In this document: piece after piece, positions 4,705 through 13,727 of the stretch
Layout: each line of letters starts with the position of its first letter
Numbering within the stretch: position 1 is the first letter of the stretch
Assembly (NCBI GenBank): GCA_026388255.1
Contig: JAPLKC010000096.1
Span: forward strand, 1 to 51,852
DNA length: 51,852 nucleotides
DNA from: Pseudomonadota bacterium
Lineage (GTDB): Bacteria > Desulfobacterota > Syntrophorhabdia > Syntrophorhabdales > Syntrophorhabdaceae
Reading direction: 5' to 3'
Position numbers and translations under genes: made by a program
Notes under the pieces: generated by a model
Told to the model about the DNA's origin: nothing
The model's database searches: none
The model's input: only the letters and a program-made list of their open reading frames with translations

Positions 4705-5556
4705 TCATTTATACTGTATATCCCCAAGCCTCGGATGCATCCTGTATTGAAACCCGAACTCGACAGGAACATCCCCCGATAATTTCTTGACAATTTCTTC
4801 GATATTTTTCTTGTCGTCTATGTTGTGCACGACACCACCTGCAACCAACCCGTATTCCACAAGACCTTCTTCTTTAAATCCTACCTCAAGTGTTGATACG
4901 GACAGGTCAGAGTTTATTGCGATTTCCGCCCTTATTTTTGCTGCAAGGGCCTTTAACTGTAGCACTTTGCCTGTCTTTTCCGTATATACTTTATCTCTTT
5001 TTTCAAGCTCTTCTTTTACAATATTGATAATTTCATCATATGTTTTAGTGCTTGTATCAAAAACAAAATCGTATTGTTCAGGGTCATCCCAGGCACTTCC
5101 ATAAATCAGATAGACAGCGCCTGCCATCTCTTTATCAGCCTTTTCTATGAGAAATCGGGCGTCTTCACTGTTATTGATTTCCTGCCATCGCATTACATTT
5201 TCAATCCTCTTTTTAATTGGCGCTGTCGTCCGTATCCTCAAAGCATGTGGCATCCCGTTCAAAAGGAAATTGCCGCCTCTTCCCATAATCACAACCCTGT
5301 CATGCAAAGCATAATTAAGAATGTGACTTTGATTTAAAGCCACAAAACCCCTGTAAGACCATTCATATCTCTCGATAACAGTCGGTTGATTTTCGTCAAG
5401 ATATTTTGTCAGCTCCTCCCAACTGGCGCCCACCTTCTTCATATCCTCAAGAATCAGTTTTCTGTCAACATATCCATAATCCAAGAGCCCGGCTATGCTT
5501 TTGCCGATCTCTTTGCCACCGCTTCCGTATTCCCTTGCTATCGTCAGTATGGCCAT
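4705..5556 (-). CDS. Cytidylate kinase-like protein with C-terminal BON-like domain
   Basis: The 283-residue protein opens with TIAREYGSGGKEIG, a glycine-rich P-loop-like motif of the Cytidylate_kin2 family, then carries RYEWSYRGFVALNQS and VVIMGRGGNFLL, which are diagnostic of this subfamily. The last 70 or so residues (VSTLEVGF to GFQYR) look like a BON-type alpha-beta repeat. Whether it phosphorylates CMP is doubtful, because these relatives lack tested activity. A close paralogue with the same architecture is encoded at 12927-13727, next to a TerC protein. Here it is the last gene after an ArsB/NhaD-type permease, so both copies sit beside membrane transport genes. The AAGGAGGGGCT ribosome site fixes the start. 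It converges with the lipoprotein gene. Confidence 0.75.
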   Translation of the reverse strand: MAILTIAREYGSGGKEIGKSIAGLLDYGYVDRKLILEDMKKVGASWEELTKYLDENQPTVIERYEWSYRGFVALNQSHILNYALHDRVVIMGRGGNFLLNGMPHALRIRTTAPIKKRIENVMRWQEINNSEDARFLIEKADKEMAGAVYLIYGSAWDDPEQYDFVFDTSTKTYDEIINIVKEELEKRDKVYTEKTGKVLQLKALAAKIRAEIAINSDLSVSTLEVGFKEEGLVEYGLVAGGVVHNIDDKKNIEEIVKKLSGDVPVEFGFQYRMHPRLGDIQYK

Positions 5557-8691: not shown

Positions 8692-10836
8692 ATGGAGAAG
8701 CTTTTCCCCAAGGGTAAAATACAAAAACTGATGTTCTGGTGTTTGCTGCTGGCTACCCTATTCAGCTTTTTTCTCTCTATTTTTCTTATCTATAATCATA
8801 TTTCCTATAAAAACACCATTGCAAAAAAAGTTAAAAACCAGGTGGTTCACCATACCATGGAGGGCGCAAGAGCAATAGACAATATTCTTAAAAAACGTAT
8901 GTCTATTGCTCAAAATATTGCTGATGATTTAACAGCCAACAAACTCAGCATGAAAGAGATTTTAAAGAAAATCAGGGATATTGTTGATGAGAACCTGCAC
9001 ATTCACGGTATTGCCATTGCTTATAGGCCTTATGCATACAATCCAAAGGTCAGGCTCCATGCGTCTTACTATGCGAGAAAATACGGGAAACCGCAATTAA
9101 TTCAGGTAGAATCAGTCTATGACTATACTAAATCGGAACACGAGTGGTATACCCTTCCAATGGAAAAAGGGGCCATGTGGGTCGGGCCTTATTCCGGACA
9201 GGCAGGCGGTGTCCTGATGACCACATATTCTGTCCCCTTTTACAAGGTTGACTCTGCAACAAAGGAAAAAATCGCTCTTGGCGTGGTAGCCCTTGATATT
9301 TCCCTGGATTGGGTGAAAAATATAGTGGACTCCCTTGATTTTGGCCATAGCGGTTACGGCGCGGTCATATCAAAAAAAGGTGTGTATCTTTATCACCCCA
9401 ACAGGGAGTATGTTCAAAAATCAAAAACAATCTTTGACGTGGCAGGGGAATCGAAAGATACGGGGAGGGAAATAGCAGGCATAAAATCATTGAGAGGCGA
9501 AAAAGGGGTTGTAGAACATACCGGTGTTACCACGGGACTCCCTTCGTGGCTTATTTTTGAGCCAATACCTTCCGCTGGATGGTCATTACATCTCACATTT
9601 ATCAAAGATGATATTCCGGTAAACCTTGATATTCTCAGGCGACAACTTATGGTGATTGTCCTTGTCTTAACAATTTTTGGTCTGTCGTTCTCATCGCTTG
9701 TTTTCCGCGCTTATGAAGGTGACAACGGGAATCTCTGGAGGATTTGCACCATTGTTTTCATTGTGCTTCTATCAGGGATAGGTATTCTCTGGCACATTGC
9801 ATTGTCATTTGATACAGACTTGAAAAGTAGAGGTGTAAAGATTATCGGAAAGGCCGGTCTGGATAGTTTTATGCATTCATATAGCAAGGAATTTATTCAA
9901 AGAGGTGCCGGCGAACCGAAATATGTACCAACCGGAATCTTTATACGGTCGGCTGAGTTCTCCGGGGCAAATAAGATATTAATGAGCGGATATATCTGGC
10001 AGAAATATAACAACAAGACCCACAAAGATATTTCCCGGGGGTTTATCCTTCCCGATGCCATAGGTGATATAAAAATCAGCGAAGCCTATTCCTTTATGCA
10101 AAAAGACATGAGGGTAATTGGCTGGTATTTTCAGGCTACGCTGTATGGACGTCTTGATTATTCCAGATACCCTGTTGATTACGAAAGACTTGGGATACAG
10201 ATTCGTCATCAGGATCTCGGTAAAAATGTGATTCTTATTCCTGACCTCGAGGCATATAAATTTATCAATCCGAGTACCTTGCCGGGCCTGGGGAAAGATT
10301 TTGTTATTCCTGACTGGGAAGTAAAAAATACCTTTTTCGAATTTATAATGAAAAATTATGACACAAATTTCGGGATTCAAGATTACTCAGGCCAGGATAA
10401 TTTTCCTGAACTATATTTTAACATAATGATAAAAAGGAATCTGGTTGATGCATTCATTCGAAATATGACCCCCCTTATCATTGTGGCGTTGCTCTTGTTT
10501 GCCGTTATGTTTATTATGGCTGAAGAGAAAATGTCAAAAAAGTTTGCCATGGACATTGGGGAAAATCTGGTTTTTATAGGGTCAATGTGTTTTGTTATTA
10601 TTTTTTCACATATCAACACCAGGGGTAGAATCCCTACACAGGAAATATTCTATCTTGAGTATTTTTATTTCGTTATCTACATTGCCCTTTTATGGGTTCC
10701 GATAAGCGCCATCCTGTTTGTAGGCGGAAACAAGTCATCTTTTATTCAATATAAGGGGAATCTTTTTTCAAAGTTACTATACTGGCCGGTAATACTGGGG
10801 GCGTTATTTACAATTACCATGATCACTTTCTATTAA
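8692..10836 (+). CDS. Cache domain fused to a pentameric ligand-gated ion channel (Cys-loop receptor superfamily)
   Basis: The 714-residue protein starts with a transmembrane helix (about 11-33), followed by an extracytoplasmic double-Cache sensor (about 40-310). Two more helices follow (about 318-339 and 348-372). Residues about 375-590 form a beta-rich domain with YSRYPVDYERLGI near 490, which matches the Pro-loop (YPxDxQ) of bacterial ligand-gated channels, and IMIKRNLVDAFIRN just before the next helix, as at the end of their ligand-binding domain. Four C-terminal helices (about 592-611, 623-645, 653-677 and 695-714) fit M1-M4, with RIPTQEIFYLEYFYF in the M2-M3 position. The Cys-loop cysteines are absent, as in other prokaryotic homologues. 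It probably gates an ion pore in response to a small ligand. The channel call comes from motif reading, not a search. Confidence 0.75.
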   Translation: MEKLFPKGKIQKLMFWCLLLATLFSFFLSIFLIYNHISYKNTIAKKVKNQVVHHTMEGARAIDNILKKRMSIAQNIADDLTANKLSMKEILKKIRDIVDENLHIHGIAIAYRPYAYNPKVRLHASYYARKYGKPQLIQVESVYDYTKSEHEWYTLPMEKGAMWVGPYSGQAGGVLMTTYSVPFYKVDSATKEKIALGVVALDISLDWVKNIVDSLDFGHSGYGAVISKKGVYLYHPNREYVQKSKTIFDVAGESKDTGREIAGIKSLRGEKGVVEHTGVTTGLPSWLIFEPIPSAGWSLHLTFIKDDIPVNLDILRRQLMVIVLVLTIFGLSFSSLVFRAYEGDNGNLWRICTIVFIVLLSGIGILWHIALSFDTDLKSRGVKIIGKAGLDSFMHSYSKEFIQRGAGEPKYVPTGIFIRSAEFSGANKILMSGYIWQKYNNKTHKDISRGFILPDAIGDIKISEAYSFMQKDMRVIGWYFQATLYGRLDYSRYPVDYERLGIQIRHQDLGKNVILIPDLEAYKFINPSTLPGLGKDFVIPDWEVKNTFFEFIMKNYDTNFGIQDYSGQDNFPELYFNIMIKRNLVDAFIRNMTPLIIVALLLFAVMFIMAEEKMSKKFAMDIGENLVFIGSMCFVIIFSHINTRGRIPTQEIFYLEYFYFVIYIALLWVPISAILFVGGNKSSFIQYKGNLFSKLLYWPVILGALFTITMITFY

Positions 10837-12926: not shown

Positions 12927-13727
12927 ATGGCAACCTTAACCATATCAAGGCAGCACGGAAGCAGCGGCAGACAGATAGGACAGGAAATAGCCCACGAAAT
13001 CGGGTATGAATACATCGACAGAGAACAAATTCTCACAGATATCAGGGAAAAAGGTCAGGAATGGGAAAAATGGGAAAAGGAATTTGAAGAACATCACCCC
13101 ACAATATGGGAAAGATATGACTGGTCTTTTAGAGGGTTTGTGGCGCTGCAACAGAGCCTTATATTTGATTACGCATTGAAGGATAATGTGGTAATCATGG
13201 GCAGAGGCGCAAATTTTCTCCTTAAGGACATTTCTTATGTTCTAAAAGTCCGTTTTGAAGCACCTCTTGATAAGCGAATCGAGATGGTCCAGAATCGTGA
13301 GAATACAGACAGGGCAACAGCTCAGTGGATGATAAAGAAACTTGACAAAGAGAGCAAAGGCTTTATCGGCACGGTATACGGCGCAGATTGGAATGTCCAC
13401 ACCTACTACGATATTATCTTCAATACAGCCGTTCAGTCTACAGATATGATCATGGCCTCTCTAAAGACTACTCTTGCAGAAAAAGATCAGCTCAAAACTG
13501 AGGACGCAAAAAATATACTCAGGATGAAGGCTGCTGCATTTCGTGTAAAAGCCGGCATTTTGACAAATTCAAAATTCTTTGTCCCGACCCTTAATATATT
13601 CCCGAGCAATGACACGATTGTCCTTAAGGGGGTAGTCCATAATCCTAAAGAGTATAAGAATCTTGAGGATGAAGCAAGGCGTCTTGCCGGCAACATACCG
13701 GTAAAATGTGAACTGAATTACCGTTGA
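12927..13727 (+). CDS. Cytidylate kinase-like protein with C-terminal BON-like domain (paralogue of 4705-5556)
   Basis: The 266-residue protein has the same architecture as the one encoded at 4705-5556: N-terminal TISRQHGSSGRQIG, RYDWSFRGFVALQQS and VVIMGRGANFLL, then a BON-like C-terminal segment (VPTLNIFPSNDTIVLKGVVH). The kinase-type P-loop is present in modified form. Catalytic activity is unproven. It is probably co-transcribed with the terC-family gene, whose stop is 17 bases upstream, and has a strong AAAAAAGGAGG ribosome site. The recurring pairing of this protein type with a membrane transporter suggests a regulatory role in solute transport; that is inference. A 15-base-pair hairpin follows the gene. 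Confidence 0.78.
   Translation: MATLTISRQHGSSGRQIGQEIAHEIGYEYIDREQILTDIREKGQEWEKWEKEFEEHHPTIWERYDWSFRGFVALQQSLIFDYALKDNVVIMGRGANFLLKDISYVLKVRFEAPLDKRIEMVQNRENTDRATAQWMIKKLDKESKGFIGTVYGADWNVHTYYDIIFNTAVQSTDMIMASLKTTLAEKDQLKTEDAKNILRMKAAAFRVKAGILTNSKFFVPTLNIFPSNDTIVLKGVVHNPKEYKNLEDEARRLAGNIPVKCELNYR

What the first reader, a model, noticed from the sequence alone, without database searches (positions are those of the whole stretch)
8692..10836. Cache sensor fused to a pentameric ligand-gated ion channel
The C-terminal 340 residues show a Pro-loop (YPVDYERLGI), a pre-M1 IMIKRN segment, four helices and an M2-M3 RIPTQEIFYLEYFYF motif, as in prokaryotic Cys-loop receptor homologues. The N-terminal half is a membrane-bound double Cache domain with its own helices, giving seven predicted transmembrane segments. 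Cache domains bind amino acids, amines or carboxylates, so this may be a ligand-gated channel with two sensory layers in an anaerobe. Bacterial channels with extra N-terminal domains (for example DeCLIC) are known to me; I cannot say whether this exact arrangement is described.
Basis: partly seen in the sequence, partly recalled or inferred. Interest (0 to 1): 0.8.

Follow-up and report, generated by a model that had tools for sequence, protein, structure and literature searches.

The report
Cache-fused pentameric ligand-gated ion channel
The gene encodes a bacterial relative of nerve-cell neurotransmitter receptors with a second, membrane-anchored chemical sensor joined to its front; the combination was predicted in 2004 but never studied, and this family's relatives also turn up inside toxin-injection gene clusters.

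Summary
Window 8692-10836 (+) is an intact 714-residue ORF. Residues 43-310 are a double Cache domain (Pfam dCache_1 E 3e-12; VIA-align Z 27.5 to 3LI8). Residues 405-714 have the full pentameric-channel fold (Z 20.0, 3.1 A over 280 residues to GLIC). Pfam's channel models miss it, but a family profile reaches GLIC at E 2.5e-8 and an hhalign comparison with standard channels gives E 4e-18. Topology is 3+4 helices: the Cache module sits on its own TM1/TM2 hairpin, and TM3 aligns with the N-terminal anchor of sensor-less members.

The fusion itself is not new: Tasneem et al. 2004 described Cache-fused prokaryotic channels, and none seems to have been characterised since. What I add: it belongs to a distinct channel clade (Desulfobacterota-like, cyanobacterial-phylum and gammaproteobacterial genomes) with full, half or no Cache module; its Cache half resembles the sensor of HAMP-SpoIIE phosphatases; and in several gammaproteobacteria members lie in extracellular contractile injection system (eCIS) operons. 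The window's own genome has no eCIS_core hit.

The Cache pocket fails the amino-acid, amine and uracil motifs, so the ligand is unknown. Ion selectivity, pentamer formation and gating are untested.

The parts
8692..10836 (+). CDS, 714 aa, Cache-fused pentameric ligand-gated ion channel subunit
8734..8790 (+). TM1 (residues 15-33), N-in anchor of the Cache module
   Evidence: hydropathy; helix 7-82 in model
8818..9621 (+). periplasmic dCache_1 sensor (residues 43-310)
   Evidence: Pfam; PDB sequence hits; Z 27.5 to 3LI8
9625..9702 (+). TM2 (residues 312-337), exit helix of the Cache module
9724..9807 (+). TM3 (residues 345-372), re-entry helix carrying W367 (26 of 27 rows); aligns with the single N-terminal helix of sensor-less members
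9904..10440 (+). pLGIC ligand-binding beta-sandwich (residues 405-583)
10168..10197 (+). Pro-loop YPVDYERLGI (residues 493-502); P494 invariant in 27 rows
10441..10521 (+). M1 (residues 584-610), preceded by pre-M1 R582 (R in 26 of 27 rows)
10555..10629 (+). M2 (residues 622-646), predicted pore helix; F634 and R644 conserved in 25 of 27 rows; E624 variable
10651..10722 (+). M3 (residues 654-677) with family signature EYFYF (656-660)
10762..10830 (+). M4 (residues 691-713), C terminus predicted periplasmic

Best explanation
The gene encodes one subunit of a homopentameric prokaryotic pLGIC with two extracytoplasmic sensors. A membrane-anchored dCache module (TM1, dCache, TM2) is joined through a short cytoplasmic turn to TM3 and the canonical channel (beta-sandwich LBD, then M1-M4). 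The most likely working is that a small molecule binding the membrane-distal Cache lobe shifts TM2/TM3, and this changes the readiness of the channel to open on a second signal at the LBD interface (allosteric modulation), giving a change in ion flux across the inner membrane. Shown here: both folds, helix count, domain order, purifying selection, and family conservation. Inferred: pentamer, homomeric assembly, helix orientation, gating, and the direction of the Cache effect. Unknown: both ligands, ion selectivity, physiological read-out.
For: Cache half: Pfam dCache_1 3.2e-12 and MCP-like_PDC_1 4.8e-13, 3LIB 2.6e-12, Z 27.5. Channel half: family profile to GLIC E 2.5e-8 in register at Pro-loop, pre-M1 Arg, M2-M3 and M4; hhalign to standard cyanobacterial-phylum channels, one of which was checked to hit GLIC, probability 99, E 4.4e-18; Foldseek GLIC-type chains E about 3e-11, TM 0.68-0.74 normalised to target; Z 20.0, 3.1 A, 280 residues, model 405-714. 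Model pLDDT 89.5, pTM 0.80. The 3+4 helix layout recurs across the family. Sensor-less members keep one helix in the TM3 position with the same Trp. dN/dS 0.17-0.23 in all four segments.
Against: No Pfam channel hit and only a weak NCBIfam hit. M2 is unusual: no cationic 0' residue (79% R/K in a published set, PMC4795631), a variable residue (E/G/D/N) at the intracellular mouth, and a conserved Arg near the outer mouth; conduction is not demonstrated. The M2 register relative to GLIC is uncertain by one to four residues between methods. No oligomer could be modelled, and the relative placement of Cache and LBD could not be inspected.
Confidence: 0.8

Rival explanations
1. Channel fold kept but conduction lost: the protein is a Cache-triggered membrane sensor in which the pLGIC part serves only as a pentamerising conformational transducer.
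For: M2 lacks the usual 0' Arg/Lys, carries a conserved Phe (F634) plus further bulky residues, and varies at the selectivity position.
Against: M1-M4, M2-M3 loop and pre-M1 Arg are strongly conserved, and the TMD is the most conserved segment of the protein (76-90% identity to three homologues), as expected for a working pore. No partner gene is conserved next to it in the window's family.
Confidence: 0.12
2. The Cache domain is a structural accessory or assembly domain without ligand binding, and the channel is gated only at its own LBD or by pH, as GLIC is.
For: Cache pocket positions drift across the family: D202 is D/N/T/E, H150 is H/Y/T/N. Members with half a Cache or none exist.
Against: The aromatic pocket core (Y145, W152, Y153, W163) is kept in nearly all dCache members. 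The nearest relatives of the Cache half are sensors of HAMP-SpoIIE phosphatases. Solute-binding-protein genes recur beside Cache-channel genes in other lineages.
Confidence: 0.2
3. An artificial or accidental fusion (assembly error or recent gene fusion).
For: None found.
Against: The same fusion, in one frame with the same linker and helices, occurs in genomes of three lineages. Channel halves form one supported clade, and 19 fused Cache halves fall on one side of a branch from other Cache sensors (98/91).
Confidence: 0.01

Closest known systems
Cache/MCP-N-fused prokaryotic ART-LGICs of Tasneem et al. 2004 (Methanosarcina, Cytophaga, Microbulbifer; PMC549065)
   Same: dCache (called MCP-N + Cache there) N-terminal to a pLGIC LBD and four TMs; some prokaryotic channels next to solute-binding-protein genes.
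   Different: The passages read place the extra domains between signal peptide and LBD and do not mention the TM2/TM3 hairpin.
DeCLIC (Desulfofustis pLGIC with N-terminal domain)
   Same: pLGIC with a large N-terminal periplasmic domain about half the subunit mass (PMC12664993).
   Different: The DeCLIC NTD is two jelly-roll lobes that bind calcium, joined directly to the ECD. Here it is a dCache domain joined through a membrane hairpin.
GLIC (Gloeobacter proton-gated channel)
   Same: Same LBD + 4-TM fold, Z 20.0; top sequence hit of the family profile.
   Different: GLIC has no N-terminal sensor; sequence identity is about 16%; pore residues differ (R644 near the position of GLIC E19').
Cache-HAMP-SpoIIE (PP2C) sensor phosphatases of the same phylum
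   Same: Closest matches found to the TM1-Cache-TM2 half (profile E about 1e-66).
   Different: Output domain is HAMP + phosphatase in the cytoplasm, not a channel. In the Cache tree the channel Caches form their own side.

Membership tests
Pentameric ligand-gated ion channels (Cys-loop/Pro-loop receptors) | extracellular ten-strand beta-sandwich LBD followed by four TM helices | tested here: met
   Model and structure comparison, Z 20.0, 3.1 A over 280 residues covering 405-714
Pentameric ligand-gated ion channels (Cys-loop/Pro-loop receptors) | Pro-loop (Y/F-P-x-D) and pre-M1 Arg at homologous positions | tested here: met
   P494 invariant, R582 in 26 of 27 rows, aligned with GLIC RYPFD and SRQ
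Pentameric ligand-gated ion channels (Cys-loop/Pro-loop receptors) | sequence homology detectable by profile | tested here: met
   E 2.5e-8 to GLIC; hhalign E 4.4e-18 to standard channels; Pfam models themselves miss it
Pentameric ligand-gated ion channels (Cys-loop/Pro-loop receptors) | cationic residue at M2 0' (common, not strictly defining) | tested here: inconclusive
   No Arg/Lys at E624/N625 or in most aligned rows, but the M2 register is uncertain; the residue is present in 79% of a published set, so it is not a defining feature (PMC4795631)
Pentameric ligand-gated ion channels (Cys-loop/Pro-loop receptors) | pentameric assembly with ion conduction | not testable with these tools
   No complex prediction or experiment available
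dCache_1 sensors | two PAS-like lobes on a long N-terminal helix between two TMs | tested here: met
   Pfam above cutoff, Z 27.5, helix 7-82 and TM2
dCache_1AA (amino-acid sensors) | aromatics plus a positively charged position early in the motif and a terminal Asp | tested here: not met
   PctA Arg aligns with H150 (H/Y/T/N in family), though W152, Y153, Y167, D202 are present. Residue number R126 recalled from memory
dCache_1AM (amine sensors) | AM motif incl. R103/D133 insertion and W155 (PctD numbering) | tested here: not met
   The insertion seen in 3LIB is missing and Trp appears replaced by Y127 by sequence alignment
dCache_1UR (uracil sensors) | N178/N180 with Y176 and D205 (A4 numbering) | tested here: not met
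   Y167 and D202 present, but N178/N180 positions are G169/A171
Tasneem 2004 Cache-ART-LGIC group | dCache N-terminal to LBD + 4TM in one polypeptide | tested here: met
   against description
Tasneem 2004 Cache-ART-LGIC group | common descent with the named Methanosarcina/Cytophaga/Microbulbifer proteins | not tested

The most novel reading that the evidence does not exclude
The protein belongs to an unrecognised pLGIC clade whose subunits carry an extra channel helix (TM3) and accept a membrane-anchored sensor cassette of the kind otherwise wired to cytoplasmic phosphatases, so that a two-component-type sensor drives an ion pore through the membrane. In gammaproteobacteria the same clade has become part of extracellular contractile injection system operons, so ion flux may govern the making, loading or release of the particles.
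Probability: 0.3. Interest if true: 0.8.

Novelty: new member of a known kind. Interest (0 to 1): 0.5.

Why it matters
pLGICs carry much of fast neurotransmission in animals, and bacterial members are their structural models; the only prokaryotic N-terminal domain studied so far is DeCLIC's (PMC12664993). A Cache-fused member would allow a direct test of how a second sensor, of a type with well-mapped ligands, tunes a pLGIC. The family is missed by the curated models tried here (Pfam, NCBIfam), and the one named relative with gene annotation is labelled 'hypothetical protein', so its spread is probably underestimated. The eCIS linkage offers a testable biological role for bacterial pLGICs, a question that has been open since 2004.

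Tried and rejected
Pfam Neur_chan models as proof of channel homology: no hit in the family, so replaced by family profiles and structure. Viral contigs and phage records: no relatives; plasmids: four distant hits. Rfam on the window: nothing. Conserved operon in the window's own family: neighbours differ in each genome, so the ParB-like, TerC, cytidylate-kinase-like, OAD_beta and CitMHS neighbours are not taken as functional partners. Ligand assignment by AA, AM or UR motif: failed; the acetate site is only partly kept (Y222 and H235 fit; the other two positions could not be placed). Ion selectivity from M2: rejected as unreliable because the register differs between alignments and the inner-mouth residue varies. 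Second structure job: short-form member L067 folds as a single Cache-like lobe plus the same 3+4 helices, with the channel part matching GLIC.

Full report
WHAT IS THERE. Window 8692-10836 (+) is one open frame of 714 aa. Pfam finds dCache_1 (3.2e-12) and MCP-like_PDC_1 (4.8e-13) in the first half and no channel family in the second; NCBIfam gives only a weak ligand-gated-channel hit at 562-661 (E 0.009). Hydropathy predicts seven TM segments.

TEST OF THE CHANNEL HALF. A profile from ten homologues reached GLIC as top PDB match at E 0.002; a profile of 25 diverse family members reached it at 2.5e-8, aligned through Pro-loop, pre-M1 arginine, M1-M3 and M4. hhalign against five standard pLGICs, one of which was checked to hit GLIC, gave probability 99 and E 4.4e-18. 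AlphaFold2 on a 38-row alignment of session sequences gave pLDDT 89.5 and pTM 0.80. Foldseek matched the two halves separately to dCache structures and to GLIC and GABA-A receptor chains. VIA-align gave Z 27.5 for residues 45-310 against 3LI8 and Z 20.0, 3.1 A over 280 residues for 405-714 against GLIC.

ANATOMY. The model and hydropathy give TM1 with a long helix, dCache, TM2, a short turn, TM3, beta-sandwich, M1-M4. Alternating orientation puts both sensors and the C terminus outside (inference; Lys-rich N terminus and M1-M2 and M3-M4 loops agree). Sensor-less relatives of 375-403 aa start with one helix that aligns with TM3 and carries the same Trp (W367, 26 of 27 rows), so TM3 belongs to the channel and the Cache module arrives with its own hairpin. 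F634 and R644 of M2 are conserved in 25 of 27 rows and the inner-mouth residue varies; M2 register against GLIC differs between the two alignments, so I make no selectivity claim. Against the 85%-identical homologue, dN/dS is 0.17 (Cache), 0.23 (hairpin), 0.22 (LBD) and 0.18 (TMD).

RELATIVES. In 60 genomes around the window's (its own included), 5 have it at E 0.001, and the window's own is among those searched. Members occur in genomes drawn from the cyanobacterial phylum (20 of 292 at E 0.001, the weakest being standard or PBP-fused channels) and in Gammaproteobacteria (8 of 248 in one order, 10 of 369 in the class). The channel halves form a clade separate from standard and PBP-fused pLGICs (100/100; the ten outgroup rows come from the cyanobacterial-phylum draw only). 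Within it the sensor is a full dCache, a half-size Cache (580-620 aa forms; L067 model), or absent. The nearest relatives of the Cache half outside the clade are sensors of HAMP-SpoIIE phosphatases, but in the Cache tree 19 fused Caches stand on one side against 22 others (98/91). This is consistent with one old fusion followed by loss or shrinkage and scattered transfer; gain versus loss is not resolved because the trees are not reliably rooted.

LIGAND. The pocket keeps aromatics Y145, W152, Y153, W163, Y167 and, in this protein, D202. It lacks the positive residue of amino-acid sensors (PctA position aligns with H150), the insertion of amine sensors, and the two Asn of uracil sensors. The best PDB match, 3LIB, is itself listed as an amine-motif domain (PMC10104139), which is a lead, not a test. 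Genes for solute-binding proteins stand beside Cache-channel genes elsewhere: Peripla_BP_5 in Brasilonema and in two Kangiella-type bacteria, Peripla_BP_6 in G1076, SBP_bac_3 in a Vibrio replicon and in G788. This extends the pattern reported in 2004. The window's own neighbourhood has none and is not conserved.

eCIS LINK (outside the window). In G1071 the order is baseplate gene(s), AAA ATPase, 713-aa protein, TPR protein, Cache-pLGIC, divergent pLGIC, methyltransferase, sensor-less pLGIC, eCIS_core gene, with gaps of 2-48 bases from the ATPase to the divergent pLGIC. G942 has tail sheath, tube, spike and baseplate-type genes, ATPase, TPR, Cache-pLGIC, pLGIC and eCIS_core. G1112 has a CIS tape-measure protein, PG-binding protein, an eCIS_core hit about 2 kb from the channel, and Cache-pLGIC. 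G999 and G1076 fit the same plan with the AAA ATPase; G1192 and G764 have an eCIS_core gene next to a sensor-less channel. eCIS_core was found in 10 of 17 gammaproteobacterial genomes with a family member and 1 of 41 without (Fisher p 3.6e-6); this is not corrected for relatedness, and the two sets were drawn at different ranks. Two eCIS surveys (PMC8213781, PMC11297309) do not mention ion channels in their main text, and a full-text search pairing 'extracellular contractile injection system' with 'ligand-gated ion channel' returned nothing in the held library. The window's genome has no eCIS_core hit, so this says nothing direct about the window's gene.

KNOWN OR NEW. Cache-fused prokaryotic pLGICs were described in 2004 (PMC549065). 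The DeCLIC authors write that DeCLIC is the only pLGIC whose N-terminal domain has been (partially) characterised (PMC12664993). I file this as a new member of a known kind. The 3+4 topology, the distinct clade, its invisibility to curated models and the eCIS linkage are additions that I did not find in the literature held here.

Noticed in passing
L112/L122 (G1071), L126/L127 (G942), L125 (G999), L128 (G1112), L124 (G1076): Cache-fused and sensor-less pLGIC genes lie in or directly after extracellular contractile injection system operons (sheath, tube, baseplate, tape measure, AAA ATPase, eCIS_core).
   Followed up: partly
L112:4049-9240; L116:4397-7695: Two or three different pLGIC genes side by side (Cache-fused, divergent, sensor-less), which would allow heteromeric channels.
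   Followed up: no
L002:1739-2564, L003:2139-2925: In two close relatives the channel gene is convergent with an RsbW-like kinase and a STAS gene, while the related Cache-SpoIIE phosphatase in L086 lies in an operon with the same pair and an NMT1-type binding protein.
   Followed up: partly
L140:11445-15696; L072:4725-8614: SBP_bac_3 protein, a short unassigned (permease-like) protein and the pLGIC form a conserved three-gene run in a Vibrio replicon and in genome G788.
   Followed up: partly
L009:4909-9530: Tandem duplication of the full Cache-pLGIC gene in a cyanobacterium.
   Followed up: no
L075:1203-2764 and L130:10491-11779: DUF2589 genes with a PG-binding or a pesticin-like gene upstream of the channel in two distant genomes; G295 (L075) has eCIS_core genes about 30 kb away on the same contig.
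   Followed up: partly
window 4705-5556 and 12927-13727: Two cytidylate-kinase-like (PF13189) genes flank the channel region on opposite strands.
   Followed up: no
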